Virus record (IMG/VR): IMGVR_UViG_3300050026_000797
Location: 1 to 50,869 of that record
Reading direction: 5' to 3' (one strand)
DNA from: a virus
Length of the DNA stretch: 50,869 nucleotides
The first letter of the stretch is position 1. The number at the start of each line of letters is the position of its first letter. The position numbers and the translations under genes were made by a program. The notes beneath the pieces were generated by a model. That model made no database searches, was not told where the DNA came from, and worked only from the letters and a program-made list of their open reading frames with translations. Shown here piece by piece: positions 34,475-50,869 of the stretch.

Positions 34475-34491
34475 GAGTCCTCCTTTGAACT

Positions 34492-35113: not shown

Positions 35114-35130
35114 CGGTCCCTCCATGATTT

Positions 35131-35159: not shown

Positions 35160-35168
35160 CAGGTAGTT

Positions 35169-37304: not shown

Positions 37305-37313
37305 TAGACGGCC

Positions 37314-37526
37314 TTAATCCCCATTTCCAGGAGTCCCAGCCGATCCAGTGGGCTGCCAGCAGTAATGGCCTACTAACTGGCCGGAATAGATCAATGGCTC
37401 ATTCGTATAGAGGTTGGTGCTGACTGTAGAGGCGGCGGCAGTCAGAATTGCAGCCACCTGTGTGGTGGTTAGATCTGAACCGGCAGCGTTCGTGAGTGAA
37501 ATATTTAATTGGAAATTGGTATACAT
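37314..37526 (-). CDS. Small paralogous protein A, 70 aa
   Basis: It shares a pattern with the next gene: FQLxxxLTxAxxxxL at the N-terminus, AA...(Y/N)xNxxLIYS in the middle and VGHYCW..P...G.P at the end. This indicates a tandem duplication. Soluble, Thr/Ala-rich; the family is not recognised. GGAG precedes the ATG by 7 bases. Confidence 0.7.
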   Translation of the reverse strand: MYTNFQLNISLTNAAGSDLTTTQVAAILTAAASTVSTNLYTNEPLIYSGQLVGHYCWQPTGSAGTPGNGD

Positions 37527-37556
37527 GAGTGGTCTCCTATCTGAGAATTTGGTAGC

Positions 37557-37772
37557 TTAGTTTAGTGCTGGGCTACCTTGGGGTGAAGAGGGCTTGAACT
37601 TATAGTCCCCCACCATTCCCATATTCTGGTATATCAGGATTTGGTTTTGATACCCATATTGGAGAAGCTGATTGGCTGCATTCTGAAGAACCGTGGCGAT
37701 ATCCTGGGGGGCCAGAGCCTGATCGGTCCCTGCGGTGGTCAGGTTCAGAGTTAATTGAAAAATTTCAGGCAT
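37557..37772 (-). CDS. Small paralogous protein B, 71 aa
   Basis: Paralogue of the 70-aa protein (FQLTLNLTTAGTDQALAPQD ... NQILIYQNMGMVGDYKFKP). Its start codon and first five codons lie in the left arm of an 18-bp perfect inverted repeat, and GGAG of its ribosome binding site lies in the loop. Translation may therefore depend on hairpin opening. Function unknown. Confidence 0.7.
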   Translation of the reverse strand: MPEIFQLTLNLTTAGTDQALAPQDIATVLQNAANQLLQYGYQNQILIYQNMGMVGDYKFKPSSPQGSPALN

Positions 37773-37814
37773 ATGGGCTCCGTCTACTTAAGGGCTCCAT
37801 ATGCCTGAAATTTT
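37759..37814. repeat. 18-bp perfect inverted repeat around a start codon
   Basis: Arms 37759-37776 and 37797-37814 (AAAATTTCAGGCATATGG and its exact complement) are separated by 20 bases. The left arm holds the ATG and first codons of the 71-aa gene; the right arm repeats those codons (MPEI) in the opposite direction. As RNA it would hide the start codon. Confidence 0.9.
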
Positions 37815-37821
37815 GCTATCG

Positions 37822-38082
37822 CTATTCTTTGGATTTGAAATCAAAGACCAACGGAGTGTTTCTGGCCTCCGCCTCCATCTGTTTGGCCCTTTCCTCACAC
37901 TTAATGAACTTATCAAACTGCTCTCGCACCTGATCTCCAATACGATGGAGTTCGATAATGTGCTCCAGAAGGTGCCGCTCTCGATCCAAAATCGCATAGG
38001 TCAGAGCATCTGCCCTCTCCTTATCGAATGGGACCGATCCACCCGGCATCATCTGTCTGAGAAGAACCACATCAGGTAGCAT
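37822..38082 (-). CDS. Hypothetical coiled-coil-like protein, 86 aa
   Basis: The start at 38082 is chosen because GGAGGGG precedes it. Highly charged and helical (DRERHLLEHIIELHRIGDQV, then KCEERAKQMEAEARN). The family is not recognised. It overlaps the end of the 57-aa gene by 11 bases. Confidence 0.65.
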   Translation of the reverse strand: MLPDVVLLRQMMPGGSVPFDKERADALTYAILDRERHLLEHIIELHRIGDQVREQFDKFIKCEERAKQMEAEARNTPLVFDFKSKE

Positions 38083-38245
38083 TTGACCCCTCCTCTTTTC
38101 TGGCCATATAGCCTTCGCTGTAGCCAATATTCCGTGCATACCGGATCAGGGCCAGGAGATCATATTGGGGTGCAGCTTGGAGTCCTACCAATTGATTCTT
38201 GGTGATTGCATCCCACAGGATCTCACCCTCCGTTTTTTCTTTCAT
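38072..38245 (-). CDS. Small hypothetical protein, 57 aa
   Basis: An ATG at 38245 opens a frame reading MKEKTEGEILWDAITKNQLV and ending GYMARKEEGSNAT with TGA at 38072. The ARNIGYSEGYMARKEE segment looks like a helix common in phage small proteins with a GYxxGY-type motif. A 16-residue frame ends on its ATG (ATGA). No strong ribosome binding site is seen, so coupling is likely. Confidence 0.55.
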   Translation of the reverse strand: MKEKTEGEILWDAITKNQLVGLQAAPQYDLLALIRYARNIGYSEGYMARKEEGSNAT

Positions 38246-38339
38246 GAGGGCTGGCCCTTCTCGTAGACCACATCATCGAACCACTGGGACATGAGATATG
38301 CCACAGATTACTACAATTTTTGGGAACATAAGATGGCCT

Positions 38340-38720
38340 TTAGTGAAGATCGTGATAGTGAGCCGCCTCTCCCAGCCAAGGTTTCCATTCGGTAGGGTAG
38401 AAACAGTTTTCCACGGGTGAGAACAGCGGGGCCATCTGGTCATCCGCATAGCCTGCGAGACCACATCCAATCCGGGTGACATTGAATGTCAGTTCTGGAT
38501 GACGAGCCGCATAAGAGAGGAAGTTGGTGATGTAATCCCCAATCTCCTCCAGACCCAACACTTCCAGATGACAGCCCTTGGTCGGAATCGCATAGCTATC
38601 CCCATGGTGGCCTATCCCACAGCCCCACACAGCCCCTCGGTTCCGCACAGCGTACAGGGCGGCTCCAGCCCCGTGGCGACCCGCGAGGTTGGAGCCAAAG
38701 ACAAAGACAGGTTCAGCCAT
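38340..38720 (-). CDS. A1S_2505-like phage non-structural protein
   Basis: 126 residues. FVFGSNLAGRHGAGAALYA at the N-terminus, then GDSYAIPTKG, VTRIGCGLAGYADDQMAPLF near the C-terminus. These are the hallmarks of a widespread phage family (A1S_2505-like) with a macro-domain-like nucleotide-binding look. The function is not established. Its ATG shares a base with the preceding gene's stop (TAATG at 38720). Confidence 0.75.
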   Translation of the reverse strand: MAEPVFVFGSNLAGRHGAGAALYAVRNRGAVWGCGIGHHGDSYAIPTKGCHLEVLGLEEIGDYITNFLSYAARHPELTFNVTRIGCGLAGYADDQMAPLFSPVENCFYPTEWKPWLGEAAHYHDLH

Positions 38721-39100
38721 TACTCCCCACCTTCAACTGGCTCACATTCGAAGCACTCGTGCAGGGCCTGGATGACCTCCGGCATATCGCTGAGGTGCCT
38801 GAACTCCACGGTGAACGGGCGGATGAACTGGCCCTTAAGCTGATCGGTCAATTCTTTGGCCTCCTTCAGCCCCATGTAGCACCCGCCTGGGGCACAGGAA
38901 GCGTTACGCAGCGTCTTGATGCAGTCCAACTGCCCCTGCTTCATCGCCGTGAACCGGATGAACCGGTAGGTCTGAGCCAGACGGGTGTTGAGGATCGTGC
39001 TGATCTGCTTGATCTCGTAGTCCAGGTCGTTACGTTTCGCCTGCTTTCCATCCAGCAGGGCCTTCAGTGCATCGGTTTCGTAGACGTTGTAGTCGGTCAT
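38720..39100 (-). CDS. Hypothetical protein, 126 aa
   Basis: Start at 39100 is chosen because GGGGGAT lies 4-5 bases before it. The N-terminal half is helical (ALKALLDGKQAKRNDLDYEI) and the C-terminal half carries five cysteines. The family is not recognised. It is the first gene behind the TATAAT promoter at 39118 and is coupled to the A1S_2505-like gene. Confidence 0.7.
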   Translation of the reverse strand: MTDYNVYETDALKALLDGKQAKRNDLDYEIKQISTILNTRLAQTYRFIRFTAMKQGQLDCIKTLRNASCAPGGCYMGLKEAKELTDQLKGQFIRPFTVEFRHLSDMPEVIQALHECFECEPVEGGE

Positions 39101-39117
39101 GTGATCCCCCATATCTT

Positions 39118-39126
39118 ATTATACCC
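39118..39126 (-). promoter_or_regulatory. Promoter -10 element (GGGTATAAT)
   Basis: Minus strand TATAAT (39123-39118) preceded by GGG. No good -35 is seen at 17 bases (GTATAC/ATACCC region), so it may act as an extended -10 or use a phage factor. The leader to the ATG at 39100 would be about 10 bases. Confidence 0.55.
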
Positions 39127-39157
39127 TAAGTCAGGGCAGTTTGGGTATACTTTTGTT

Positions 39158-39337
39158 TTATCTAGGGGGCTCTTCTGGGTTGAGTTCTACATCAACGACC
39201 CGATGAACCCGTCCCTCCACATCCACCCAGACTGATTTAGCCCAGACGAATCTGTTGCCCCTCAACGAAAAATATTCACCTTCAGCGTTTTCGTTACTTC
39301 TCAGAACTGCTTCAAGTAGTGCGATTGGGATTCGCAT
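39158..39337 (-). CDS. Hypothetical protein, 59 aa
   Basis: The start MRIPIALLEA at 39337 is decided by a perfect AAGGAGGT 5 bases upstream. Soluble, Val/Glu-rich (FVWAKSVWVDVEGRVHRVVD). The family is not recognised. It overlaps the end of the 93-aa gene. Confidence 0.7.
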   Translation of the reverse strand: MRIPIALLEAVLRSNENAEGEYFSLRGNRFVWAKSVWVDVEGRVHRVVDVELNPEEPPR

Positions 39338-39593
39338 TGGACCTCCTTGGACCATGTTGACTCCAGTAAGTGGTGTCAAAAGCTGTGCAAAAGGCCAAGA
39401 AATCTCCTAGCCTCACATCTGCGGCGAACTGAAATAACATCCTCTCTCCGGTTGGTAAAGTAGGGTCATTACTACATAGATGACCTTGCTCTTTAGCCAA
39501 TTTTTCTAAACTGGCACCCCGGAACATACATATTTGAACTCCACCATCTTCGGTGGGAGTGAAATGTTCAAGTTTTAAAATCGGTCCTGACAC
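39312..39593 (-). CDS. Hypothetical protein with GTG start, 93 aa
   Basis: Begins at GTG (39593) with GAGG 6 bases upstream. Mixed alpha/beta, three cysteines, no recognised motif (ILKLEHFTPTEDGGVQICMF). The end overlaps the 59-aa gene by 26 bases. Confidence 0.65.
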   Translation of the reverse strand: MSGPILKLEHFTPTEDGGVQICMFRGASLEKLAKEQGHLCSNDPTLPTGERMLFQFAADVRLGDFLAFCTAFDTTYWSQHGPRRSNANPNRTT

Positions 39594-40996: not shown

Positions 40997-41194
40997 CTAG
41001 CCCATCGGCTTCTCATTAACCATTGCCGGTGAAAGCCACCACCACGGAGAGTCAAACCATGCATGGTGGTAACCTACACAACTATGAGAATGCCCCCCGC
41101 TCCCGCCCCAATCTGGGCTAAGGCAGATGATTGCAGCCCCAAATAGACTTAACGTAACTAACCACACACGCATTCTAGAACAAAGCGTAATCAT
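40997..41194 (-). CDS. Small His/Trp-rich membrane protein, copy 2
   Basis: 65 residues. The N-terminus MITLCSRMRVWLVTLSLFGA parallels METLRSKIPVWLVGLILAGA of copy 1. The tail contains GGSGGHSHSCVGYHHAWF and PWWWLSPAM. Exported or inner-membrane-anchored by one helix. AGGAG 7 bases before the ATG mirrors copy 1. Function unknown. Confidence 0.6.
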   Translation of the reverse strand: MITLCSRMRVWLVTLSLFGAAIICLSPDWGGSGGHSHSCVGYHHAWFDSPWWWLSPAMVNEKPMG

Positions 41195-41455
41195 GCAAAC
41201 TCTCCTGCGAACACCAGAAGTAATGCATCTTACATGCCACTTACGCCGATGTTGGGACTGCTATGGTTAGGTGCGTTGAGATAGAGACTCAGCTTCCAAA
41301 CCTAATCAAAATGGATGTGGTGGGTAATCAGAATGGTGCCTTTCTGACCCTATGGTGAGGCAGAGCGGGAAATGGCACAAACGTGGAATAAGTCGCATTT
41401 TACTTGGGGGATGACAATCTGTCTGGCACAGAACAATCTCCTTCCAGGGGGTATC
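41195..41455. other. Divergent intergenic region
   Basis: 261 bases between the leftward His-rich gene and the rightward repeat-protein gene. An open frame continues upstream of 41456 but lacks a ribosome binding site there. No convincing promoter pair, RNA gene or repeat was seen. Confidence 0.4.
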
Positions 41456-41803
41456 ATGGATATCATACTGGCCAATCCCTGGGCCTGCCTAATGTATGCT
41501 AGGCGAGTAATAAAGGGTCGATGGCCCAAGGGTGAGCCAACAATTATGAAAGACCCCTATGACGCTCAAGTTTATGCCACTCAGGTAATAGGAGGTAGGT
41601 GGCCAGAGGCGGAACCCACTATCGCAACCGAACCCTACTCGGCTGTTGACTATGCCCTATTCGTCATCAAGGGGCCATGGCCCGAAGCCGAACCGGCCAT
41701 CCGATCAGAGCCGTATTGCTCAGATGTGTATGACCAGTTCCTGCGTCGAGCTTACTATAAGATAGAGCCAGGAGACCCCTTCGAAGAGATTGGTAACCGA
41801 TAG
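41456..41803 (+). CDS. WPEAEP-repeat protein
   Basis: 115 residues from MDIILANPWA, chosen because AGGGGG lies 4 bases upstream. About 3.5 copies of a 22-23-residue unit: YARRVIKGRWPKGEPTI, YATQVIGGRWPEAEPTI, YALFVIKGPWPEAEPAI, then a degenerate end. Same unit as the 84-aa protein at 30739. Helical-repeat proteins of this type are widespread in phages without known function. It is a lone rightward gene among leftward ones. Confidence 0.75.
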   Translation: MDIILANPWACLMYARRVIKGRWPKGEPTIMKDPYDAQVYATQVIGGRWPEAEPTIATEPYSAVDYALFVIKGPWPEAEPAIRSEPYCSDVYDQFLRRAYYKIEPGDPFEEIGNR

Positions 41804-41818
41804 AGTCCCAGGCTAACC

Positions 41819-42178
41819 TTAAGTCAACTTACCCTCTGAGGGGTAGAACGTATCCCACCATTCCAAATCGTAAGCCAGGGCCTCATCCTCCATCATCGTT
41901 CCGACGAAGTAATCATCATGCTCTTGACAGACAAAGCAGGCTTTTTCTTCGGTGCTGAATACCCCGATGATTTCCCATGCTTCATCCGAGTCCTTACCTA
42001 CCACCCAGAGAGTTCGGGGCTCCAACGCAGGCTTCAGCAGGTTGGCATTGACCCAACTGGCAAAGCCCCGGATGTTACCGGCCACAAGGGTCTTTTCATA
42101 ATCTGAAGTGCCAAAACTCCAATGCAAAGAATTGATGTAAGCTTCAACCCAATCGGTAAATGGATCAATCTGTGTCAT
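41819..42178 (-). CDS. Hypothetical acidic protein, 119 aa
   Basis: Aromatic- and Asp/Glu-rich (DPFTDWVEAYINSLHWSFGT; WVVGKDSDEAWEIIGVFSTE). The second half looks like a small alpha/beta 'display of daily-value' type domain often seen in phage hypothetical proteins. GGAG stands before the ATG. The family is not recognised. Confidence 0.65.
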   Translation of the reverse strand: MTQIDPFTDWVEAYINSLHWSFGTSDYEKTLVAGNIRGFASWVNANLLKPALEPRTLWVVGKDSDEAWEIIGVFSTEEKACFVCQEHDDYFVGTMMEDEALAYDLEWWDTFYPSEGKLT

Positions 42179-42187
42179 TATTACTCC

Positions 42188-42442
42188 TCAGTTTAACCCC
42201 GGTAGGGGAATGTGGTGTTCTCTGGCAAATCGCTGCATCTCTTCTGGAGTGCGAAACGGCCCATACGTATGCTTCAGTTCCATGGAGGACTTGTGGAACC
42301 CAAAAATACACATTGGCCCAGACCCACAAATATTCAAGGTGCGGTCCCATTCAGCCGTATAGAGTGGCATTGGAGAGCAGACCCAGTTAATCTGTTCAGG
42401 GATTCGGTGGTAGATGAACCGGTGGTGACTCAGTCCTTCCAT
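42188..42442 (-). CDS. Hypothetical protein, 84 aa
   Basis: Contains four cysteines, and RTPEEMQRFAREHHIPLPGL at the C-terminus. The start lies inside the end of the preceding gene, with GGAAAG upstream. The family is not recognised. Confidence 0.6.
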   Translation of the reverse strand: MEGLSHHRFIYHRIPEQINWVCSPMPLYTAEWDRTLNICGSGPMCIFGFHKSSMELKHTYGPFRTPEEMQRFAREHHIPLPGLN

Positions 42443-42966
42443 TTCTTTTTCCTTTCTGGTTTGGATATCTTAGGGAACATTTCTATTACTGCTAATCGAA
42501 CCGCTCGTTTCAGTACATCGTAGCGTCTCTCAACGAGTTGTTGCTTAAATATTTTAAAGTGGACTGAATGTCCTTCACCAACGAGAAGCACCGTTATTCC
42601 AAACCCCACTAAAAAATCCCCACTAGTATCGCTTGTAATCGTCACATCGGGGTTCTTAACTCCCTGCTCTGCTAGGGTCTTAAGAACTTCATCAATGACA
42701 GTAGTTTTGTAAGACTCACCCGGCTCTGAGTTTTCCTCGGATTCTGGCTCTGGGGGTGGAGGTGGGTTCTGCTCCAAATATTCAAACAACTGGTCGAACG
42801 GATCTTGCCGTTCTTTGCAGATAGCCACTGGAACTCTCACCCTATAACTTCCCCACATACTGGACCATATGCCACTGTAATACTTGTCCTTGTAGACGAG
42901 TCTCACCTCGTGAATACAGGAACCAGGGGGAACGTTCTTATACTCCGCAGTCGTCATCACATCCAT
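42430..42966 (-). CDS. Hypothetical protein, 178 aa
   Basis: The start MDVMTTAEYK at 42966 is decided by AGGAGGTGAGT. The N-terminal ~60 residues are beta-rich, followed by an acidic Pro-rich linker (NPPPPPEPESEENSEPGES) and a C-terminal alpha/beta domain with a basic tail (KISKPERKKKWKD). A TGAGTAATAC element lies 18 bases before the ribosome binding site. No family recognised. Confidence 0.65.
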   Translation of the reverse strand: MDVMTTAEYKNVPPGSCIHEVRLVYKDKYYSGIWSSMWGSYRVRVPVAICKERQDPFDQLFEYLEQNPPPPPEPESEENSEPGESYKTTVIDEVLKTLAEQGVKNPDVTITSDTSGDFLVGFGITVLLVGEGHSVHFKIFKQQLVERRYDVLKRAVRLAVIEMFPKISKPERKKKWKD

Positions 42967-42993
42967 ACTCACCTCCTGATACGTATTACTCAA

Positions 42994-43191
42994 CTACTTC
43001 TTCCGTCTGGTTTTGTTTCTTTCAGTGTTACGCTTATGCCATGCGTGGACTTCAGCCAAGGAGAGTTCACGACGACGAATCACTTCCTCACCGGGTCGGA
43101 GGGCAGCAATCATCTTCTCCCTGACCTCATCCTGATCCTTACCCGAATAGACCTTCTGCTCCAATACACCTTCGTACCTGGTCTCTTGCAT
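42994..43191 (-). CDS. Small basic protein, 65 aa
   Basis: Charged with a strongly basic C-terminus (WHKRNTERNKTRRKK). A central helix (EVREKMIAALRPGEEVIRRR). Possibly nucleic-acid-binding. AGGAG precedes the ATG. The family is not recognised. Confidence 0.65.
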   Translation of the reverse strand: MQETRYEGVLEQKVYSGKDQDEVREKMIAALRPGEEVIRRRELSLAEVHAWHKRNTERNKTRRKK

Positions 43192-43193
43192 CG

Positions 43194-43427
43194 TTAGTCT
43201 CCTCTAGTGATGATTTGTTTAACTTGTTCCAGCGTGAGAATGCTAGGGTCTACTCGGCAGCAGTGGGTGAAAGTTACTTCCGTCCCATCCGCAAACTTTA
43301 ACTCGGTTTCATTCTCGCAACCTCGGTCCTCCTCGACCCCGTTCTCATCATAAGATGGACCACCACAATGAAGGCAATGACGGGTCTCAGGGTGAATCAT
43401 ATCATACTGGTAACAGTAAAGATGCAT
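43194..43427 (-). CDS. Small CxxC protein, 77 aa
   Basis: CLHCGG near residue 18 and later C...CC cysteines (GCENETELKFADGTEVTFTHCC) suggest a zinc-binding fold. The C-terminus is a short helix (TLEQVKQIITRG). AAGGAG precedes the ATG. Function unknown. Confidence 0.65.
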   Translation of the reverse strand: MHLYCYQYDMIHPETRHCLHCGGPSYDENGVEEDRGCENETELKFADGTEVTFTHCCRVDPSILTLEQVKQIITRGD

Positions 43428-43448
43428 TCCTGCTCCTTATGGGAAGGG

Positions 43449-44015
43449 TTACTGCACCTCGAACTTTTGAATGATGGTGCCGGGAGGAACGTTAAGGGTA
43501 AGGTTTTCATTCCTCCAAGTTTCCTGCACGTACCACTTCGGCCACCATTTATAGCATTTACGGTTGGTTTCCAAAGTGGTATCGTAGGATAGGTTGGGCT
43601 TCTCCCCGGCAGTCTCTCGGATCAACGATTCCCCAGTATTAATCTCTCCCCTCCGATAGGTCTGGTGCCCCAAATCATATATGAAGTAGTATTTTTCATC
43701 TGCTCCGATATGACCACAGCCCAGAAAGAAGTCCCCACTGACCTCGGAGGCACCCCGCAGGGAGACGATAGGGCAGACGTTGTGCTGGACCACTATTTCA
43801 GTCCTACCGTTGCTGCTAAAAATTGCCGCAACAACTAGAGTGAATATACTTGTTAGCACTCCACCGACTATAAAGGTCACAAAACCCACGTGCTCACCGG
43901 GGAGATCAATACCGTGGTGTTCCGCCCATTCTGGAACGTGCCCCCCAGTGTGAGATTTGTAGGAAGCGATTATGACCCACACCAGCCATGCGGCAACTAT
44001 GATGTAAAAAAGCAT
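43449..44015 (-). CDS. Phage membrane protein with extracytoplasmic beta domain
   Basis: 188 residues. Two N-terminal membrane helices (LFYIIVAAWLVWVIIASY and HVGFVTFIVGGVLTSIFTLV) and a C-terminal domain with SLRGASEVSGDFFLGCGHIG, KYYFIYDLG and a final LNVPPGTIIQKFEVQ. The latter pattern is a known phage/bacterial family (VSLRxxSxxxGxFFLGxG ... YEFHVPxGTI) of unknown function. TGAGTAATAA stands upstream of GAGGAG. Confidence 0.7.
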   Translation of the reverse strand: MLFYIIVAAWLVWVIIASYKSHTGGHVPEWAEHHGIDLPGEHVGFVTFIVGGVLTSIFTLVVAAIFSSNGRTEIVVQHNVCPIVSLRGASEVSGDFFLGCGHIGADEKYYFIYDLGHQTYRRGEINTGESLIRETAGEKPNLSYDTTLETNRKCYKWWPKWYVQETWRNENLTLNVPPGTIIQKFEVQ

Positions 44016-44077
44016 TGCTTCTCCTCAGTTGTTATTACTCAATCAGTTATGATACTAAATCCCCGGCTGGGAGTAGG

Positions 44078-45076
44078 TCAGATGTGGCAATCAACCAGAG
44101 TCAGAAGGGTGTTGGCCGGGAGTTCGTCCAGCATAGCATTGAACTCTCGATTCCACTGCCCCCGATCCTTCTCGTTGCTCACACAGGCCCACCAGCCCAT
44201 CTCACCTCGCTCATGCCACTTGCCATCCCTCACATAGGCGAAGGGAACGCAGGCCGCATTCTTGGCTCGCTCCACATAGGTCTGTTCGTCGCACTGGAAC
44301 TCTTCGATATTCTTGGGGAGCTGATCATCGGCCTTCATGGCCTTGAGCCTAACCAGGGCAGGCTGAGCGTGGTAGAAGTCCCGCCTCGCATCGATGCCCC
44401 CCAGTGACTTGTCTTCGACCACATCCTTCCACAGATGTTCAAGCTTTGGCATTTCCCCGCCGAACGCCTTGGCCACATCCTCATACCGTTGGAATGCGCT
44501 GACCGCCGCTTCGGTACGCATCCCTTCCAGGTCCACATCTCCGACCATCAGTTGATCCGCATGTCCAGCTTCAGCTTCAGGGGTCATCAGGCCAGGGGTT
44601 CCCAGCAGTCCACCGATATGAGCGACCGCCTCTTTCAGCTTGTAGAAGCCGGTCCACCGACCACCCATCTGGTACCAGTCCCATTTGGCGTGAGTGTCCT
44701 CCCAGTAACCATAACGATTCATCTGGGGATCCCGTTCCTTGGAGCCGTGCCAGTCCGTGGCGTAGTCTTCGAACGTGGGGTAGAGTTCGGTGAATCGCAT
44801 CTCCCGCTGCTCCAACTCCTCGGGAACCGCATACTCGCTACCGATATGCCCCTTATGGTATGGAACCCTGAAGCATTCGTCATAGCGACTCTTGAAGGAG
44901 CCATCCGGCATGACGACTCGCTTGTCAGTTTCGGTCTGGTACTTCTCCAACATCTCGTCTTCCTCATCGTTGAAGACGAGGTAATCCTTGGGGCAATCCC
45001 CCATGTTGTTCTCCTGGTAGGGAGCGAGCTGCTCCTCCGGATTAGGGCCGATGACGAGTACGGTGAAATGTGAAAT
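44078..45076 (-). CDS. Conserved phage protein (SHFTVLV family) with AUU start codon
   Basis: 332 residues. Homologues known to me begin MSHFTVLVIG; here that sequence is encoded as ATT-TCA-CAT, so the initiator at 45076 is ATT. GGAGGT sits 5 bases upstream (45087-45082) and a TTGACG-17-TATCAT promoter just beyond. In-frame codons further upstream lie inside the promoter and the next in-frame ATG would remove the conserved start. Other conserved features: AKWDWYQMGGRWTGFYKLK and GLMTPEAEAGHADQ. Function unknown; widespread in phages. Confidence 0.8.
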   Translation of the reverse strand: MSHFTVLVIGPNPEEQLAPYQENNMGDCPKDYLVFNDEEDEMLEKYQTETDKRVVMPDGSFKSRYDECFRVPYHKGHIGSEYAVPEELEQREMRFTELYPTFEDYATDWHGSKERDPQMNRYGYWEDTHAKWDWYQMGGRWTGFYKLKEAVAHIGGLLGTPGLMTPEAEAGHADQLMVGDVDLEGMRTEAAVSAFQRYEDVAKAFGGEMPKLEHLWKDVVEDKSLGGIDARRDFYHAQPALVRLKAMKADDQLPKNIEEFQCDEQTYVERAKNAACVPFAYVRDGKWHERGEMGWWACVSNEKDRGQWNREFNAMLDELPANTLLTLVDCHI

Positions 45077-45095
45077 GGTACACCTCCGATAAGAT

Positions 45096-45124
45096 ATGAT
45101 ACCCGAAATTGGGGAGTTCGTCAA
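45096..45124 (-). promoter_or_regulatory. Strong sigma70-type promoter
   Basis: Minus strand TTGACG (45124-45119), 17-base spacer ending GGG, TATCAT (45101-45096). The predicted transcript begins near 45089, immediately before GGAGGT, leaving a very short leader to the ATT start. Confidence 0.75.
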
Positions 45125-45133
45125 CAAAACTTT

Positions 45134-45535
45134 TTACTTTTCTACTCTGGACAGAGCAGCTTCAAACCACATTCCCTGCCGCCCAGTCAATTGGGCCGCA
45201 TGATCCAGAATGACTCCGCTGAACCATCTGCCCCGCCATTCAAAACTCTCCAACCAATGTGGGTCAACAATTTGTAAGTCGGTTCGACCCAGATGTTTAG
45301 CCAGATCCTTGGGGTAGTAGAGGTGGAAGTTGCACCAGATGTATACCGCACACGCTGGGGCCATACACATCTGTAAACTAGTCCTCCCACCCTGCCGTTC
45401 ATCCGAATAGCTATACAGATAAGCTAGATTTTCGTATAACGCCTTGGCGGCTACCGGGTCCATCTGCTTTTGTCTGGCCTGAAGCTCTTCATAAAAGCTG
45501 GCTAGTTCTTTCTGGAACTCACTCTCTTCACTCAT
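45134..45535 (-). CDS. Hypothetical protein, 133 aa
   Basis: A charged helical N-terminus (EFQKELASFYEELQARQKQM), then an aromatic alpha/beta region (WCNFHLYYPKDLAKHLGRTD). No motif identified. Its ATG overlaps the stop of the 70-aa gene (ATGA, 45532-45535). Confidence 0.65.
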   Translation of the reverse strand: MSEESEFQKELASFYEELQARQKQMDPVAAKALYENLAYLYSYSDERQGGRTSLQMCMAPACAVYIWCNFHLYYPKDLAKHLGRTDLQIVDPHWLESFEWRGRWFSGVILDHAAQLTGRQGMWFEAALSRVEK

Positions 45536-45744
45536 CTGATGATTCGATTCAGTAAGCCCTGAAGAGCTAGATGCAGATCAGAGGTGGTGAAATCGACCGG
45601 ATGTTCTCCTGGCCGATTTGCAATGATCTGATATTGATTGGGCAGGGACTCTCTTTCGGAGTTTATATACTGCCGAACCGTCAACGTCACCTCGTTAATT
45701 TTCACATTAGTTTTGGGGTCCGAACCAAAGATTGGAAACTCCAT
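45532..45744 (-). CDS. Hypothetical protein, 70 aa
   Basis: Begins MEFPIFGSDPKTNVKINEVT at 45744 (GGCGGAG nearby); upstream in-frame codons have no ribosome binding site. The protein resembles a small beta-rich domain. The family is not recognised. Confidence 0.6.
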   Translation of the reverse strand: MEFPIFGSDPKTNVKINEVTLTVRQYINSERESLPNQYQIIANRPGEHPVDFTTSDLHLALQGLLNRIIR

Positions 45745-45820
45745 CACTCCGCCTCTGTCTTTGCAATTTCTAATGCGGCATTCAGCAGGAGACCCATTCG
45801 ATCCTTCGCATGAGGGCTGA

Positions 45821-45913
45821 TCAGATGATCCAACTCTGATCCTTACGTCTCGCACAAACTAGGGGCAGGCCCTCCTCAACAGAAATCTTTTCCAACTTCT
45901 CTATCTGATCCAT
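45821..45913 (-). CDS. Possible coupled small ORF, 30 aa
   Basis: The ATG at 45913 shares a base with the stop of the 103-aa gene (TAATG) and GAGGAG lies upstream. Reads MDQIEKLEKISVEEGLPLVC and stops at 45821. A second short frame (LDHLISPHAKDRMGLLLNAA...) follows in another phase up to the 70-aa gene, so this may be one gene with a frameshift. Confidence 0.35.
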   Translation of the reverse strand: MDQIEKLEKISVEEGLPLVCARRKDQSWII

Positions 45914-46224
45914 TAGCTCTCCTCGGGTGTTTCTGGAACCCCCATCTGGTGCAACACTAAACTAGAGTGCCCCTCCTTACGGGCTGTCTTTGCCACCCAG
46001 AACATGTATTTGTCCACGTTGACCCCGCCACCCGCCGCACACTGGGACAGCGCACGGTAATGTTCGATGATCGGATGGCCCGTATCAATCGCTGACGTAC
46101 AGAATGCCCCATCCGCGAACTCGAAGGATGCGAAGAATGGAATCTCCTCTTCCTTACAGATACGGATGATTTCGGTCATCAGAGGGCTGAGCCGCTTGTC
46201 GTAAACCGATTCCTTATTTTCCAT
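45913..46224 (-). CDS. Hypothetical protein, 103 aa
   Basis: Soluble, with LSPLMTEIIRICKEEEIPFF near the start and a Gly-rich segment in the middle (SQCAAGGGVNVDKYMFWVAK). A mixed alpha/beta phage protein of unknown function. A TGAGTATTTG element precedes it. Confidence 0.65.
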   Translation of the reverse strand: MENKESVYDKRLSPLMTEIIRICKEEEIPFFASFEFADGAFCTSAIDTGHPIIEHYRALSQCAAGGGVNVDKYMFWVAKTARKEGHSSLVLHQMGVPETPEES

Positions 46225-46239
46225 TTCTCACTCCATTGA

Positions 46240-46611
46240 TCAAATACTCAGATTTTTCACTTCAGCTAAGGCAGCCTCGATAGAATCATAAGTGTGCCAA
46301 AGGGGATGATGGCGGAACACAGGACTCAGCGATTCACAATCCCCTACGCAGTAGATGGGCTTCCCTAGAGCTAGAGCGGCCCCGACTTCCATCAGGGCTC
46401 CTTTGAGGATCTCCCCTGGCAGGCAGTAGAGTAGAATGACATCCGCTTCGGCTACTTCCCGAAAGCATCGATTTGTCAGATCCGCAAAATCTAATGTGAC
46501 CCCCTTTTCGGCCTCATCAATCCAGGTGGACATGATATTGATTCCAGATGCTCTTAGGCTTTGCCACATGGGAGCATGTTTAACTTTGCTTGCTCCATAC
46601 ACCTTTGCCAT
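46240..46611 (-). CDS. Nucleoside 2-deoxyribosyltransferase-like protein
   Basis: 123 residues from ATG 46611, with GGAG 5 bases upstream. Rossmann-like: MAKVYGASKVKHAPMWQSLR, STWID, ADVILLYCLPGEILKGALMEVGAALALGKPIYCVG. The GALMEVGAALALGKPI segment with Glu75 matches the catalytic-Glu helix of the NDT/DUF4406-like family. It could exchange bases on deoxynucleosides or hydrolyse a nucleotide. The overlap with the 109-aa gene suggests one operon. Confidence 0.7.
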   Translation of the reverse strand: MAKVYGASKVKHAPMWQSLRASGINIMSTWIDEAEKGVTLDFADLTNRCFREVAEADVILLYCLPGEILKGALMEVGAALALGKPIYCVGDCESLSPVFRHHPLWHTYDSIEAALAEVKNLSI

Positions 46612-46613
46612 TC

Positions 46614-46943
46614 TCACTCCACAAAATGTATGGTTTGGCTGGCTGGCATCGCCCACCATTTCGACCAGTAGGCTTTGGCTTCCTTCCACGGCTGGTCTGG
46701 ATCAAAATAACCAATCGTGCTGGTTTCAGAACTCTGTTTGGTTATTTCTTCAAACCACACATGCTCCTCTAGGTTATTCCAATCCGGCTCCTTGAAACAA
46801 AATTCATATTTTGAATCAATCCGGTTGCCCTCGTCATCAAAAACCAGATAACCGTTCCGCAGTGAAGCATTGATCCGCTCACAGATGGCTCGGCATTTCT
46901 GATAGTTTTGTCTAACCTGTCTATCACTAATCGGTTTAGCCAT
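46614..46943 (-). CDS. Hypothetical protein, 109 aa
   Basis: A basic N-terminal helix (DRQVRQNYQKCRAICERINA) and a Trp-rich C-terminus (QPWKEAKAYWSKWWAMPASQ). No family recognised. Overlaps the 96-aa gene by 8 bases upstream and ends 2 bases before the deoxyribosyltransferase-like gene. Confidence 0.65.
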   Translation of the reverse strand: MAKPISDRQVRQNYQKCRAICERINASLRNGYLVFDDEGNRIDSKYEFCFKEPDWNNLEEHVWFEEITKQSSETSTIGYFDPDQPWKEAKAYWSKWWAMPASQTIHFVE

Positions 46944-47226
46944 GCAAAACTCCTCTGACTACTTCTCTAATGGTTGCAAGTTTCTCTGGTGTGTTCAGAT
47001 CCGCATCATAGAGATGGTCTTCGATCTCCAGCAGGGCCTTCCCCGCTACCGATTCAGCCGTCACATCTTTACGTTTCAGGATCAGCACGATAGGGAGGGC
47101 GGGGCCTCCTTCCATGACACAGAGTTCCCAGCCATCCTTCCCCATGAGGTTCAACTCATCAACTGTTTCCTTGATGGTGGGATAGGTTTCAAATCTGATG
47201 GGGGTGTATTCCCACAGATCATGCAT
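46936..47226 (-). CDS. Hypothetical protein, 96 aa
   Basis: A small alpha/beta protein with KETVDELNLMGKDGWELCVM followed by a strand (PALPIVLILKRK), the DUF4177-like pattern 'LN..G..GWEL.....' of small phage/bacterial proteins. Function unknown. Coupled to both neighbours by 8-base overlaps. Confidence 0.65.
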   Translation of the reverse strand: MHDLWEYTPIRFETYPTIKETVDELNLMGKDGWELCVMEGGPALPIVLILKRKDVTAESVAGKALLEIEDHLYDADLNTPEKLATIREVVRGVLHG

Positions 47227-47416
47227 GAGATGTCTCCAATGCCCTGATTAGAATATCCACCTCTTGAGCAGCAAGATCAGCAAGTTGTTCTGTGGTGAGT
47301 TTAGGTGGGAACCCCATACCCATATCCACTATCCCATGCTTTGGGATATAAGAATCGTAACGAAGAATCAACGGCTCAAACAATTGAGCGTCGAAGTCTG
47401 AGAGGTTCTGGTCCAT
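47219..47416 (-). CDS. Hypothetical protein, 65 aa
   Basis: A small acidic protein with a helical C-terminus (TTEQLADLAAQEVDILIRAL). AGGAG precedes the ATG. The family is not recognised. Confidence 0.65.
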   Translation of the reverse strand: MDQNLSDFDAQLFEPLILRYDSYIPKHGIVDMGMGFPPKLTTEQLADLAAQEVDILIRALETSHA

Positions 47417-47428
47417 TCTGACGGCTCC

Positions 47429-47707
47429 TTAAAAAATTAATTCATAACCTTTGGTAGCGGGAATCAGACGGCTCATCCGAATCGGGATCCCATGGATCCA
47501 GCCCATCAGACCCTGCTGTAATAATACTCGTGAGCCGCAACGGATCAGACTCCCATCAGCTTCGATATGAGCTAGTTTACCATAAACGACCGGATGCATC
47601 ACGATTTGTTTTGGTCGGAGCAACTCAGCCTCCGCACACATTCGTTCATATGACGACTGGGAGTCCAGTTGGTTATGTGTTCCTAGAGTTAGGATGACGG
47701 CTCTCAT
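47429..47707 (-). CDS. Hypothetical protein, 92 aa
   Basis: Contains SYERMCAEAELLRPKQIVMHPVVYG, reminiscent of phage major-capsid-like 'P..IVMHP' segments, but the protein is short and sits in the early arm, so that similarity is probably superficial. ATG shares a base with the preceding stop (TGATG). Confidence 0.6.
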   Translation of the reverse strand: MRAVILTLGTHNQLDSQSSYERMCAEAELLRPKQIVMHPVVYGKLAHIEADGSLIRCGSRVLLQQGLMGWIHGIPIRMSRLIPATKGYELIF

Positions 47708-47925
47708 CAGACATACCCCTCAGCAACGAGTCGCGCCCTGACCAATCTCCAATTCGCTCTCAGCAGGAGTCGGTCTTCCTTGCTTAATCCCGACTCTGCT
47801 TTCTTCACCTGTCGGTCCATATGGTTCAAATCAGACCCACCGCAGAGCATTAGTCCCAGACGGATATGCTGGTAGAACAGTTCCGTATCTTTCAGTCGGT
47901 CGGGTAACGGATAAGTATGCTTCAT
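47707..47925 (-). CDS. Hypothetical basic protein, 72 aa
   Basis: The start MKHTYPLPDRLKDTE at 47925 lies 1 base after the MazG-like stop with GGAAAGG upstream. Helical and basic (GLSKEDRLLLRANWRLVRAR). The family is not recognised. Confidence 0.65.
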   Translation of the reverse strand: MKHTYPLPDRLKDTELFYQHIRLGLMLCGGSDLNHMDRQVKKAESGLSKEDRLLLRANWRLVRARLVAEGYV

Positions 47926-47926
47926 A

Positions 47927-48298
47927 TTAGAAAGCCTTTCCGCCATGCCGGAAGGAACGGTTGCGATTAAACTCTTTCTTCGCAAGGATAGCTTCGGGGA
48001 GTCGGTAACCCTTACGAGCCGCATAGTTCATGATCCGGATCACCACATCGGCCAATTCTTCCTCCACCCCACTGAATTGAGGAATATGAACTGAGGGAGG
48101 ATTACCATGCCGCACAGCCTCTAACGCTTCGGACAGTTCGGAGTGCATGAGACAAATCGACTCCCCATCGTTCTGATTCGGCTCCTCCCACCCATGGTCT
48201 TTGGCGATTTGTAACGTCTCCATCGCCACCTCCCCCCAGGTGAGACTAAACTGAACGCATCTAAACTCTAATCCTTCCACATCAAACGGTTCTTCCAT
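47927..48298 (-). CDS. MazG-like nucleotide pyrophosphohydrolase
   Basis: 123 residues. The all-alpha NTP-PPase signature is complete: HSELSEALEAVRHGNPP with Glu54/Glu57, then EEELADVVIRIMNYAARKGY with Glu81 and Asp84 binding Mg2+, and a C-terminal AILAKKEFNRNRSFRHGGKAF. Such enzymes hydrolyse NTPs or dNTPs to monophosphates; phage copies may clean modified nucleotides or alter alarmone levels. A TGAGTATTAG element and GAGGAG precede the ATG. Confidence 0.88.
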   Translation of the reverse strand: MEEPFDVEGLEFRCVQFSLTWGEVAMETLQIAKDHGWEEPNQNDGESICLMHSELSEALEAVRHGNPPSVHIPQFSGVEEELADVVIRIMNYAARKGYRLPEAILAKKEFNRNRSFRHGGKAF

Positions 48299-48312
48299 CT
48301 TGACTCCTCTGA

Positions 48313-48897
48313 ATGCTAATACTCAGCGGGGCGGAACTTCTCTTATCAACCCTGTGGGCACCAAAAAATTTGTTCAGACGCGAAACGGAGAATGGTAACC
48401 AATGGGATACGCAGAAGTTTATGATCGGAGACCTGGATGGTGATTTTGATGCCCCGGCCTATCTCTTCGGCTCCAAACTGAATCAGCAGGTATGTGGCCT
48501 CCTCAACCCCAGCCGGGTGGAGATGGAGGACTGGGACGGTCAGACCATAGCGATGTGTTATGCGTATAATCCTGAACTTGTCAGAGCAATGCAATCGTTA
48601 TCCTGGACGGAGTTGTGCCCTGGCTGTTGGTCCAACCTGAACCGAACAAGGTATATCAGCGAGGATGACCCAGATATGGATATGTGTGGAGGGGGTGGGG
48701 GAGTAAGGCTTACCGACTCCACCGGACACCACAAGGTTTGTCCCACCGACCGCTACAGTAAGGGCAGTTCTCCGATTCTTTCGGCATCATCAGCTTGCAC
48801 TCTTTGCACTCTTTCCACTCTTCAGGACTCATGCAACGCCGTATCTCTTCATCTTCTTCAAAGCTATGGGTGGACATATGGACCTCCGCTAACATAA
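48313..48897 (+). CDS. Possible rightward gene, C-terminus doubtful
   Basis: The plus strand between 48360 and ~48700 is purine-rich and reads like real protein (MIGDLDGDFDAPAYLFGSKL; EDWDGQTIAMCYAYNPELVR). It may start at 48421 or earlier; no strong ribosome binding site is seen. Beyond a G-run (48690-48702) the frame is only the complement of the leftward zinc-ribbon gene. A one-base shift in the G-run would end it at a TAA near 48703, just before that gene. No family recognised. Confidence 0.35.
   Translation: MLILSGAELLLSTLWAPKNLFRRETENGNQWDTQKFMIGDLDGDFDAPAYLFGSKLNQQVCGLLNPSRVEMEDWDGQTIAMCYAYNPELVRAMQSLSWTELCPGCWSNLNRTRYISEDDPDMDMCGGGGGVRLTDSTGHHKVCPTDRYSKGSSPILSASSACTLCTLSTLQDSCNAVSLHLLQSYGWTYGPPLT
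48710..48877 (-). CDS. Small zinc-ribbon protein, 55 aa
   Basis: From ATG 48877 with GGAGGT 4 bases upstream. Four cysteines in CKECKLMMPKESENCPYCSG form a zinc ribbon; the N-terminus is acidic (STHSFEEDEEIRRCMSPEEW). It is the first leftward gene after the repeat region, with CTCAGTATTA and a 12-bp repeat element just upstream. Confidence 0.7.
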   Translation of the reverse strand: MSTHSFEEDEEIRRCMSPEEWKECKECKLMMPKESENCPYCSGRWDKPCGVRWSR

Positions 48898-49199
48898 TAC
48901 TGAGGCCGGTGCCGAATTTTGTAAAACGCCGAATCGAAAATTGAGAAAAAATATGCGCGATTTTTTTTGATGGCCTATTTTGCCGAACCAAAAACTCGAA
49001 AAATTTTAGGAAAATGGTCCGACCCATAGGCCCCTCCCGGCATTTTATGCCTACCAAACCTTTGGGGGGGCTGTTTTTACCCATCGGTCATTCCTGCACG
49101 GTGCAAAACTTACACTGCGAATTTTTCCTGGGAAAGAATTAATCGGCACCGGCCTCTCTGGTCAGCAAGCCGACTTCGCTGACTTTCCATTCCTATCGT
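48878..49199. other. AT-rich non-coding region with two 12-bp elements
   Basis: No convincing gene. It contains the 12-bp element at 48904-48915 and 49143-49154 (opposite orientations) and an AT-rich tract (48915-49015, including eight consecutive T's). This is compatible with an origin unwinding region or leader, but unproven. Confidence 0.5.
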
Positions 49200-49466
49200 A
49201 TGCGACTCACCCCGTTCTACGCTCTCACCCTCACCCGCTCCAGGCTCTGTTCCCCCCAGCTCCGCGCAGCCCTGGAGCGGGTCATCAGTGCAGGCACCGG
49301 CTCTACAGAAACTTACATGGAGGAGCAGGGGTTGATCAGTAGCGTCTCCGGGCTCAGCATGGCTCAGCATCGGAAGCGTTGGCAGGTGGTGAACGAATGG
49401 AGACGACAGCATGGCTGCCCTGAGTGGCGGATACAGCGTGGGGATGCTATCCGTTCAGAACGGTAG
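49200..49466 (+). CDS. Possible small gene, 88 aa
   Basis: The plus-strand frame reads well in its second half (MEEQGLISSVSGLSMAQHRK; VVNEWRRQHGCPEWRIQRGD) with a basic helical character, but no ribosome binding site precedes 49200. Its last codons lie in a perfect 13-bp palindrome (49451-49463). A DNA-binding role is only a guess. Confidence 0.35.
   Translation: MRLTPFYALTLTRSRLCSPQLRAALERVISAGTGSTETYMEEQGLISSVSGLSMAQHRKRWQVVNEWRRQHGCPEWRIQRGDAIRSER
49451..49463. repeat. 13-bp perfect palindrome
   Basis: CCGTTC-A-GAACGG. A possible operator at the edge of the non-coding control region. Confidence 0.6.
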
Positions 49467-49658
49467 ACTAAGGTTTATTCATTGGGTTTTCTGACGTTAT
49501 GAACCCGAATCTGAACCGTTCATCAGTCTGATAGATAAGTGTAATGATGGTAGCAGGATACGCGGTATAAACGATGTAACATAATTACCCTTATCATAAC
49601 TAACCCTATCAGTCAGATAAGAAGTCGGCACCGGCCTGGGAAGAATTCCCTGCTTAGT

Positions 49659-49719
49659 AGACGCATTACGTCACTTTCTGACTATTTTTCAGAAGTCTCA
49701 AAAGTGACGCATTACGTCA
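49659..49719. promoter_or_regulatory. Twin palindromic operator-like sites
   Basis: AGACGCATTACGTCA (49659-49673) and TGACGCATTACGTCA (49705-49719), the second a perfect TGACG/CGTCA inverted repeat. A 6-bp inverted repeat (TTCTGA/TCAGAA, 49676-49694) lies between them. Confidence 0.6.
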
Positions 49720-49722
49720 GTG

Positions 49723-49758
49723 GGCCGGTGCCGATCTGATAAGAAGTCGGCACCGGCC
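49723..49758. repeat. Perfect 12-bp-arm hairpin made of two opposed repeat elements
   Basis: GGCCGGTGCCGA, 12-base loop, TCGGCACCGGCC. It could form a cruciform or an RNA hairpin. Confidence 0.85.
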
Positions 49759-49764
49759 TTTGTG

Positions 49765-49782
49765 GTGTGACCAGAGTCACAC
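49765..49782. promoter_or_regulatory. GTGTGAC palindrome
   Basis: GTGTGAC-CAGA-GTCACAC, a perfect 7-bp inverted repeat resembling a regulator binding site. Confidence 0.55.
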
Positions 49783-49861
49783 ACCGAAATAATTACATTT
49801 ATTAATCGTTTCATTTCATACATTTACGTCAATTAAAATCTGTAAGTGATGGAGCGTCCCC

Positions 49862-50224
49862 CTAGTTATCTTTGCTGAGGCCGGTGCCGACTTTCTTACT
49901 GAGCCACTGTTCCAACTCCGCAGCCTTCATCCGCTTGAAGTTTGACAGCAGAGCGGTGCGGCTGATGCCGAGCCATTTGGCTGTTTCGGTCTGACCTGAA
50001 ACACATATCCGCTCCTCCAACTCCTGAACGGAGGGCCAAACAATATCCAAGGCCGGTGCCGGTTTCAGATACTTCGCATAATTAATCTTTCCTTGACAGC
50101 GGTGACATCGGGTGCCCGGTCGAGTCACAGGTTTCCCACAGTCCAGACAGGTGCCTTTCTTCGCCGCACAGGTCTTGCACAGTAAAATTTGCCCACATTG
50201 TCCACACACTCCGAACGCTGCCAT
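49862..50224 (-). CDS. Zinc-ribbon/HTH DNA-binding protein
   Basis: 120 residues from ATG 50224 (AGG 5 bases upstream, AGGAGG further back). Eight cysteines in four CxxC pairs (CGQC, CKTC, CLDC, CHRC, residues 7-43) form two zinc ribbons. Residues ~78-98 (QTETAKWLGISRTALLSNFK) are a helix-turn-helix. Two copies of the 12-bp repeat lie inside its coding sequence (49879, 50051) and others flank it. It may bind those repeats as replication initiator or regulator; this is inferred from position only. Confidence 0.7.
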   Translation of the reverse strand: MAAFGVCGQCGQILLCKTCAAKKGTCLDCGKPVTRPGTRCHRCQGKINYAKYLKPAPALDIVWPSVQELEERICVSGQTETAKWLGISRTALLSNFKRMKAAELEQWLSKKVGTGLSKDN

Positions 50225-50386
50225 TTTTGCCTGTCTCCTCCTAAGCGGAATAGGTAGATAGAAAATGCCGGGCAATTAGGAGTGGGTAAAATGTGCCGGT
50301 GCAGACTACGAGCCTGGGATTTTTCCACTTTTGGCCATTCTGACCCACTCTGGTCCACCTGATGAGGAATTCTTCCCGACCCCAAA

Positions 50387-50560
50387 TCGGCACCGGCCTG
50401 CGAAGGTTCATATTAAAAGGCCGGTGTCTTCTCCGTAGAGTCGGCACCGGCCTGCGAAGGTTCATATTAAAAGGCCGGTGTCTTCTCCGTAGAGTCGGCA
50501 CCGGCCTGCGAAGGTTCATATTAAAAGGCCGGTGTCTTCTCCGTAGAGTCGGCACCGGCC
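50387..50560. repeat. Three 54-bp tandem repeats plus a fourth partial unit
   Basis: Units start at 50387, 50441 and 50495, with a partial copy at 50549-50560. Each holds TCGGCACCGGCC and, 20 bases on, GGCCGGTGTCTT in the opposite sense, so every unit can form a hairpin with an AT-rich loop (TTCATATTAA). Confidence 0.95.
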
Positions 50561-50612
50561 TTTTAATAAACTATTGTTAGACTTTTACTTTCTTGAAATG
50601 TCTCAGAAATTT

Positions 50613-50645
50613 TTGTATCCAAACTCTCGCAAGATGTGGTATTAT
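50613..50645 (+). promoter_or_regulatory. Promoter-like element for the last gene
   Basis: Extended -10 TGGTATTAT (TATTAT at 50640-50645) with a weak TTGTAT at 50613 (21-base spacing). The leader is about 40 bases to the ATG at 50691. Confidence 0.45.
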
Positions 50646-50690
50646 CCCTATAGATGCTCATCGCAGCACACGCTCAAAGGAGAGCCAGAC

Positions 50691-50869
50691 ATGACAAAGG
50701 AGTTGAGTGGAGTAAGAGTGATCGAACTGAAGACCGATCTGGGGAAGGACCAGTTCTGGGATCGGTATGAGCGGTGCTTCAAGACATATCATGCACTTTA
50801 CAATGAAGTCCCCTGCTGGGGGCTGGATTGGGTGGAGCAGAAGACCCAGAATCAGACCAGCCGAGAACT
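50691..50869 (+). CDS. Rightward gene, 5' part only
   Basis: ATG at 50691 with AAAGGAGAG 6 bases upstream. 59 complete codons are visible (MTKELSGVRVIELKTDLGKD ... YHALYNEVPCWGLDWVEQKT) and the frame is open at the window edge. It begins the rightward transcription unit on the far side of the repeat region. No domain recognised. Confidence 0.85.
   Translation, partial: MTKELSGVRVIELKTDLGKDQFWDRYERCFKTYHALYNEVPCWGLDWVEQKTQNQTSRE

What the first reader, a model, noticed from the sequence alone, without database searches (positions are those of the whole stretch)
45074..45124. AUU initiation codon directly behind a consensus promoter
The conserved protein start (M)SHFTVLVIG is encoded with ATT at the Met position, with GGAGGT 5 bases upstream and TTGACG-17-TATCAT beyond. 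Upstream in-frame starts lie inside the promoter. AUU starts are rare (E. coli infC is the classic case) and are discriminated by IF3, so the gene may be expressed at low level or under IF3-dependent control.
Basis: partly seen in the sequence, partly recalled or inferred. Interest (0 to 1): 0.5.

Follow-up and report, generated by a model that had tools for sequence, protein, structure and literature searches.

The report
Phage gene with AUU start codon
A gene of unknown function in a large bacterial virus appears to begin with the very rare start codon AUU, backed by an unusually strong ribosome-binding site, and a diverged relative has the same arrangement, so it is probably a real, low-efficiency start and not a sequencing error.

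Summary
On the minus strand, ATT (45076-45074) sits where relatives of this phage protein (phrog_10079, unknown function) have Met. A 7-nt Shine-Dalgarno match GGAGGTG (45087-45081) lies just upstream. A diverged relative (313.6 kb phage contig; 56% of synonymous sites differ) keeps the ATT and 31 of 32 bases from GGTATCAT to ATTTC, so sequencing error is unlikely. Codon-periodic constraint is clear after the ATT and not seen over the upstream in-frame TTG extension. Starting at the next ATG (45004) would delete conserved codons and the first predicted beta strand. Of 80 viral family loci examined, 72 have ATG, 4 GTG, 2 ATT (identical copies of that one relative) and 2 are truncated; AUU looks like a rare derived state of one lineage. 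The TATCAT element belongs to a promoter-like motif recurring in the relative's genome. The TTGACG -35 is not conserved. Low expression and IF3 sensitivity are inferred by analogy with infC, pcnB and S. aureus cvfC1, and were not shown here. No IF3_C match was found in either record. This is a new phage member of a known kind, of modest interest.

The parts
44078..45076 (-). Gene of the phrog_10079 family (332 aa, unknown function, MSHF...DCHI) read from the ATT start to the stop codon
   Evidence: phrog_10079 E 1.1e-67 over residues 1-332; orthologue dN/dS 0.156; AlphaFold2 model pLDDT 94.9, pTM 0.87
45074..45076 (-). ATT (AUU) initiation codon at the Met position of the family
   Evidence: kept in the diverged relative; ATG or GTG in 76 of the 78 viral loci that are complete at this end (in one, L091, the ATG stands one codon later, directly before HFT)
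45081..45087 (-). Shine-Dalgarno GGAGGTG, 7-nt match, 4 nt before the ATT (aligned spacing 6 in the script's measure)
   Evidence: duplex with an assumed common bacterial anti-SD -13.4 kcal/mol; 2 of 56 other hand-chosen window genes equal or exceed it
45096..45102 (-). GTATCAT: -10-like element of a motif (GTAWNAT) that recurs in the relative's genome just before RBSs
   Evidence: invariant in the relative
45119..45124 (-). TTGACG, -35-like hexamer, 17 nt before TATCAT; not conserved in the relative
45125..45127 (-). Rejected alternative start TTG (17-codon extension)
   Evidence: No SD; extension shows no codon periodicity (5,4,6 differences by codon position) and dN/dS 0.78
45002..45004 (-). 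Rejected alternative start ATG (codon 25) with AGGAG, perhaps an internal secondary start
   Evidence: codons 2-24 are constrained and hold strand E3-9 and helix H13-20 of the model
45134..45535 (-). Upstream co-directional gene (133 aa, no Pfam or PHROGs match) whose stop lies 57 nt before the ATT

Best explanation
The gene is translated from the AUU at 45076-45074, most likely by the host's ordinary fMet initiator tRNA. Its CAU anticodon pairs with the first two bases, and a 7-nt Shine-Dalgarno pairing holds the 30S subunit over the weak codon. A short phage transcript probably starts a few nt after GTATCAT and gives a leader of about 10-14 nt, with read-through from the upstream gene also possible. 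Expression per mRNA is probably several-fold to tenfold lower than with AUG, and AUU is of the codon class IF3 rejects. Shown: the codon, its place, the SD, conservation in one relative, and reading-frame constraint from about this codon on. Inferred: actual initiation there, the transcript start, low yield and IF3 sensitivity.
For: (1) Homology puts Met at this codon: phrog_10079 matches residues 1-332 to profile 1-344; of 80 viral loci 72 have ATG and 4 GTG, 15 of 15 genome loci read at this position have ATG, and both named phages fetched have ATG. (2) Relative G001 keeps ATT while codons 2, 4, 5, 8 and 10 carry synonymous changes. (3) Codons 2-25 differ 3, 2 and 11 times at positions 1, 2 and 3; the 17 in-frame codons before ATT differ 5, 4, 6. 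(4) The SD is among the strongest in the window, and about 0.2% of ATT triplets have one like it. (5) The 32-base block GGTATCAT...ATTTC has 1 difference against 14 of 30 in the adjoining upstream stretch (Fisher p 6e-5). (6) The ATT lies 19 nt after GTATCAT; 27 of 44 motif sites in G001 have their start 15-20 nt after it. (7) Precedent: S. aureus cvfC1 AUU with a very strong extended SD gives about 10% of AUG expression (PMC13009471, section 10 read).
Against: No expression data. Only one independent relative shares the ATT: G001 and G002 are identical over the two stretches compared and come from the same metagenome. ATT unchanged between two sequences is weak evidence for selection on AUU itself. 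The in-frame TTG at 45127 is also present in G001, the frame between is open in both, and the last nine codons of that extension (GIISYRRCT) give the same residues in both, with one synonymous change. An ATG with AGGAG exists at codon 25. The anti-SD used was assumed, since the host is unknown. The G001 copy carries a 549-nt in-frame insert, so its own gene may be altered or spliced.
Confidence: 0.85

Rival explanations
1. Translation starts at the in-frame TTG 45127 (from a transcript begun further upstream), giving a 17-residue extension, and the ATT is an ordinary Ile codon.
For: TTG is present and the frame open in both window and G001, and the last nine extension residues are the same in both; no terminator-like site was listed between this gene and the upstream gene, so read-through is possible.
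Against: No SD at TTG; extension codons as a whole show no periodicity, dN/dS 0.78; relatives have their Met at the ATT place; it would leave the strong, conserved GGAGGTG unexplained.
Confidence: 0.06
2. Translation starts at ATG 45004 (codon 25) and the upstream part is no longer translated.
For: ATG with AGGAG at spacing 5.
Against: Codons 1-25: pS 0.66 against pN 0.09, ratio 0.064 against 0.166 in the rest of the gene; S2, H3, F4 and V8 invariant in 8-row A1, H3 invariant and S2, F4, V8 nearly so in 67-row A2; strand E3-9 and helix H13-20 would be lost. G001 has the weaker AGGAAAAC there.
Confidence: 0.03
3. The ATT is a sequencing error or a start-codon mutation that silences the gene in this isolate.
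For: Every more distant relative read has ATG or GTG. AUG to AUU switches are extremely rare in prokaryotes: 1 of 61,358 (PMC5622118, passages).
Against: The same ATT is in a separate contig with changed codons on its 3' side; the reading frame has stayed under purifying selection since the split (dN/dS 0.156); the SD is conserved.
Confidence: 0.04
4. AUU is a regulatory switch: the gene is kept low while IF3 is plentiful and rises as infection lowers IF3 activity or raises initiator tRNA. (A regulatory layer on top of the best explanation, not exclusive with it.)
For: AUU is the codon of E. coli infC, which is under IF3 feedback (stated in PMC5472188, passages); relative G001 carries a tRNA-Met gene with an A1.C72 mismatch that resembles an E. 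coli tRNA-Met; a mismatch at the acceptor end is an initiator feature (PMC2268962, passages).
Against: No IF3_C match in G000 or G001; the other initiator feature named there, three consecutive G:C pairs in the anticodon stem, is broken by a C.C mismatch in the G001 tRNA, which also has no encoded CCA; the leader RNA fold is ordinary (z 0.23); no expression data.
Confidence: 0.15

Closest known systems
S. aureus cvfC1 (AUU) and ccpN (AUA) starts with extended Shine-Dalgarno (PMC13009471, section 10 read)
   Same: AUU start (cvfC1) with a very strong SD, non-canonical codon and SD conserved in relatives; gene of little-known function
   Different: Bacterial genes shown by ribosome profiling and reporters; here a phage gene, sequence evidence only, conserved in one relative
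E. coli infC (AUU, IF3; passage of PMC5472188) and pcnB (AUU; title seen in a reference list)
   Same: Same codon, same class of IF3-discriminated starts
   Different: infC encodes IF3 and feeds back on itself; this protein had no Pfam match and no IF3_C match was found in either phage record
Y. pestis RcsD-Hpt internal AUU start (PMC10191623, passages)
   Same: AUU with RBS; that study reports stronger function with AUG in its place
   Different: Internal start in a frameshifted bacterial gene
phrog_10079 family (Pseudomonas phage MP1412, Myxococcus phage Mx1 and others)
   Same: Same protein family over its full length, same N- and C-terminal motifs
   Different: Apart from G001/G002, the members read here start with ATG or GTG
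Salmonella phage f18SE, reported to have ten CDSs starting with AUU (PMC4599075, passage)
   Same: The only printed claim of AUU starts in a phage among the papers listed by my searches
   Different: Its deposited record has 46 ATG, 5 GTG, 2 TTG and no ATT among 53 CDSs, so the claim is not borne out by the record

Membership tests
Genes with a non-canonical (AUU-type) initiation codon | AUU occupies the position of the initiator Met by homology | tested here: met
Genes with a non-canonical (AUU-type) initiation codon | Strong SD at proper spacing | tested here: met
   GGAGGTG, -13.4 kcal/mol with an assumed anti-SD, 2 of 56 other genes as strong
Genes with a non-canonical (AUU-type) initiation codon | Non-canonical start conserved in relatives | tested here: inconclusive
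   Conserved in G001/G002, which count as one independent relative; others read have ATG or GTG
Genes with a non-canonical (AUU-type) initiation codon | Ribosomes initiate there; AUG replacement raises expression | not testable with these tools
   Needs a reporter or profiling
IF3-regulated starts (infC type) | Expression responds to IF3 | not testable with these tools
   Only the presence of a phage IF3_C match was tested: 0 of 2 records
phrog_10079 | Full-length profile match | tested here: met
   E 1.1e-67, profile 1-344 of 344
Sigma-70-type promoter | -10 element in a conserved position | tested here: met
   TATCAT conserved and part of a recurring motif
Sigma-70-type promoter | -35 TTGACA-like at 16-18 nt | tested here: inconclusive
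   Present in the window, not conserved in G001

The most novel reading that the evidence does not exclude
A large-phage lineage has put one gene under initiation-fidelity control. The AUU start with a compensating SD reads the ratio of initiator tRNA to IF3, and the phage's own initiator-like tRNA (seen in relative G001, with a mismatched 1:72 pair) shifts that ratio during infection and switches the gene on. It would be a phage version of infC-type control without encoding IF3.
Probability: 0.06. Interest if true: 0.75.

Novelty: new member of a known kind. Interest (0 to 1): 0.42.

Why it matters
AUU starts are very rare: PMC5622118 reconstructs 1 AUG to AUU switch among 61,358 ancestral AUG starts (passage). 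A gene finder that accepts only ATG, GTG and TTG would misplace this start, for example at 45127 as the ORF list does or at 45004. A phage case with a compensating strong SD, conserved in a diverged relative, adds a clean natural example of SD strength offsetting a weak codon, and can be tested in a laboratory reporter.

Tried and rejected
Sequencing error: made unlikely by the diverged relative. Start at TTG 45127 or ATG 45004: see rivals. Phage-wide use of AUU: among 57 hand-chosen window ORFs only this one lacks a canonical start at the place fixed by homology, but the other 56 were only required to have a canonical codon near their 5' end, a weak test. Among motif sites with an SD in G001 and the window, 37 have a canonical start and 29 do not; of the 29, five offer one of the eight near-cognate codons tried with an ORF of 60 codons or more, two being this gene in the two genomes; the other three were not examined one by one. 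Leader RNA switch: fold not better than shuffles (z 0.23) and the hairpin differs in G001. Function by fold: no solved chain matched the family profile by sequence at E up to 1; Foldseek had no PDB match at E 0.001 or better; the VIA-align second look had best Z 3.2 over residues 182-276 only, not informative; six viral models matched at E 0.001 or better, all uncharacterized or unnamed. No Pfam match at E 0.001, no NCBIfam or PADLOC match at E 0.1 for this protein. Near-identical phages: no megablast match in 'phages' for positions 1-25000 or 25870-50869 (25001-25869 not searched). The 20-base upstream block was found in viral contigs only in G001 and G002. Literature on phage AUU starts: searches in the open-licence library; one search listed 40 of 69 papers. 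Among those listed only f18SE claims AUU starts for a phage, judging by titles and abstract starts, and its record contradicts the claim. Absence from print is not claimed.

Full report
What is there. The window is a virus record of 50,869 bases. On the minus strand, after an upstream co-directional gene ending at 45134, come TTGACG-17-TATCAT, GGAGGTG, four bases and ATT at 45076-45074, followed by the codons for SHFTVLVIG and a 332-codon reading frame whose stop ends at 44078. The protein matches phrog_10079 over its whole length (E 1.1e-67). This is a family of unknown function with relatives in, among others, Myxococcus phage Mx1 and Pseudomonas phage MP1412.

Is it an error? A pattern scan of viral contigs for the SD-ATT-SHFT arrangement gave 31 stretches, of which two encode the same protein: L013 and L040, on contigs of 96 and 313.6 kb from one metagenome. 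The two stretches of these contigs that were compared are identical, so they count as one relative, G001. Much of the window aligns with G001 in order, at 69-99% nucleotide identity by block. In this gene 56% of synonymous sites differ and dN/dS is 0.156. The ATT is kept while codons 2, 4, 5, 8 and 10 carry synonymous changes. An error, or a recent loss of the start, would not look like this.

Where does translation begin? Codons 2-25 differ between the two phages 3, 2 and 11 times at codon positions 1, 2 and 3. The 17 in-frame codons between TTG 45127 and the ATT differ 5, 4 and 6 times, with dN/dS 0.78. The last nine of those 17 codons do keep their residues, with one synonymous change, but they overlap the conserved -10 and SD. 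The protein constraint thus seems to start at or very near the ATT. The TTG has no SD. The ATG at codon 25 has a moderate one (-7.4 kcal/mol), while the ATT's SD is -13.4 kcal/mol, equalled or beaten by 2 of 56 other window genes (anti-SD assumed, host unknown). 3 of 1816 ATT triplets in the window have an SD match of 7 nt or more. In the AlphaFold2 model (mean pLDDT 94.9, pTM 0.87) residues 3-9 form the first strand and 13-20 the first helix; a start at codon 25 would remove both.

Family census. Of 193 relatives matched in viral contigs the best 80 were kept. My script read a start for 69 of them; one of these (L091) was a wrong assignment and eleven were left unread, so twelve were settled by eye. 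Result: 72 ATG, 4 GTG, 2 ATT (the identical G001 and G002 copies) and 2 cut off before the start. In L091 the ATG stands one codon later; L055 has an ATG but an in-frame stop further on. Near-duplicate rows were not removed from this count. Of 32 loci in genome contigs, the 15 whose match began at residue 1 were read and have ATG; the other 17 were not read. Of 48 named phage records only Mx1 and MP1412 were fetched, and both have ATG. AUU therefore looks like a derived state of this lineage.

Promoter. The hexamer match is not above chance by itself (10 sites in 41000-50869 against 9.6 in shuffles). In G001, however, GTAWNAT occurs 44 times in the 45 nt before RBS-bearing ORFs, against 15 for its reverse complement (the 44 were made non-redundant, the 15 were not; the ORF set is mechanical). 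GGTATCAT is counted 6 times in the 40 nt before such RBSs where 0.64 is expected. In 27 of 44 sites the start lies 15-20 nt after the motif; here it is 19. The 32-base block from GGTATCAT to ATTTC has 1 difference between the phages, while the 30 bases before it, holding TTGACG, have 14 (p 6e-5). So the -10 and SD look constrained and the -35 does not. A transcript starting a few nt after TATCAT would have a leader of about 10-14 nt; this is inferred. Its predicted fold is ordinary.

How it most likely works. The host's initiator tRNA pairs with AU of AUU, and the long SD pairing compensates for the third-base mismatch. In vitro, AUU read by a CAU anticodon gives full-length peptide, but its share fell to 31.1% when IF3 was raised to 1.5 uM (PMC10158994, passages). 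In S. aureus, AUU or AUA starts with extended SDs give about 10% of AUG expression in poor medium (PMC13009471, section 10). Low yield here is an inference from these. IF3-dependent control is possible, but neither record has a match to IF3_C (the control search found it in 12 of 14 known genomes, 10 over the cut-off; IF3_N was not searched and the window record is a fragment), and the protein itself has no Pfam match.

A side observation bears on the most novel reading. G001 carries 49 tRNA genes, one of which (205404-205478) resembles an E. coli tRNA-Met gene (76% over query bases 2-72). It has an A1.C72 mismatch, a kind of feature that marks initiators, but the three G:C pairs of the anticodon stem, the other mark, are broken by a C.C mismatch, and no CCA is encoded (features as given in PMC2268962, passages). 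That the E. coli gene is the initiator (C1.A72) is my reading of its sequence; the annotation says only tRNA-Met. The window does not cover the corresponding region.

Comparison with what is known. AUU starts are known from E. coli infC and pcnB, S. aureus cvfC1 and Y. pestis RcsD-Hpt. For phages the papers listed by my searches held one claim, Salmonella phage f18SE with ten AUU starts, but its deposited record holds 46 ATG, 5 GTG, 2 TTG and no ATT in 53 CDSs. This gene is like those known cases by anatomy, and the expression criteria remain untested. I rate it a new member of a known kind.

Noticed in passing
L040 1246-1794 (G001 249163-249711): In relative G001 the AUU gene carries a 549-nt insert between GYWE and AKWDW that is open in the gene's own frame (183 codons; about 1.5e-4 by chance with equal codon use) and holds, in another frame, an Endonuclease_7 ORF (Pfam E 4e-20). 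No Rfam match at E up to 1.
   Followed up: partly
L001 1192-2388: A family member has an in-frame TAA at codon 23, after MSHFTVMVFGENVEEQLAPYDE, with the frame otherwise open to the usual DCHI end.
   Followed up: no
G001 9368-17456, 201446-214276, 223627, 261983-262432: 49 tRNA genes, including a tRNA-Met with A1.C72 mismatch at 205404 that resembles an initiator in part, and a CUA-anticodon tRNA at 223627 that ARAGORN calls Pyl.
   Followed up: partly
G001 whole contig; window 45096-45102: Recurring promoter-like motif GTAWNAT, in 27 of 44 sites 15-20 nt before a start codon, implying very short leaders.
   Followed up: partly
window 32418-39592: Three adjoining blocks 95-98% identical to G001, around tRNA genes and a GIY-YIG homing endonuclease (36172-36867), while other blocks range from 69 to 99%: looks mosaic, with recent exchange.
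   Followed up: no
window 50241-50555: ORF with three tandem copies of a TLRRRHRPFNMNLRRPVP peptide: a short DNA tandem repeat near the end of the record.
   Followed up: no
PMC4599075 / KR270151: Published statement that ten f18SE genes start with AUU is not borne out by the deposited record: 46 ATG, 5 GTG, 2 TTG.
   Followed up: yes
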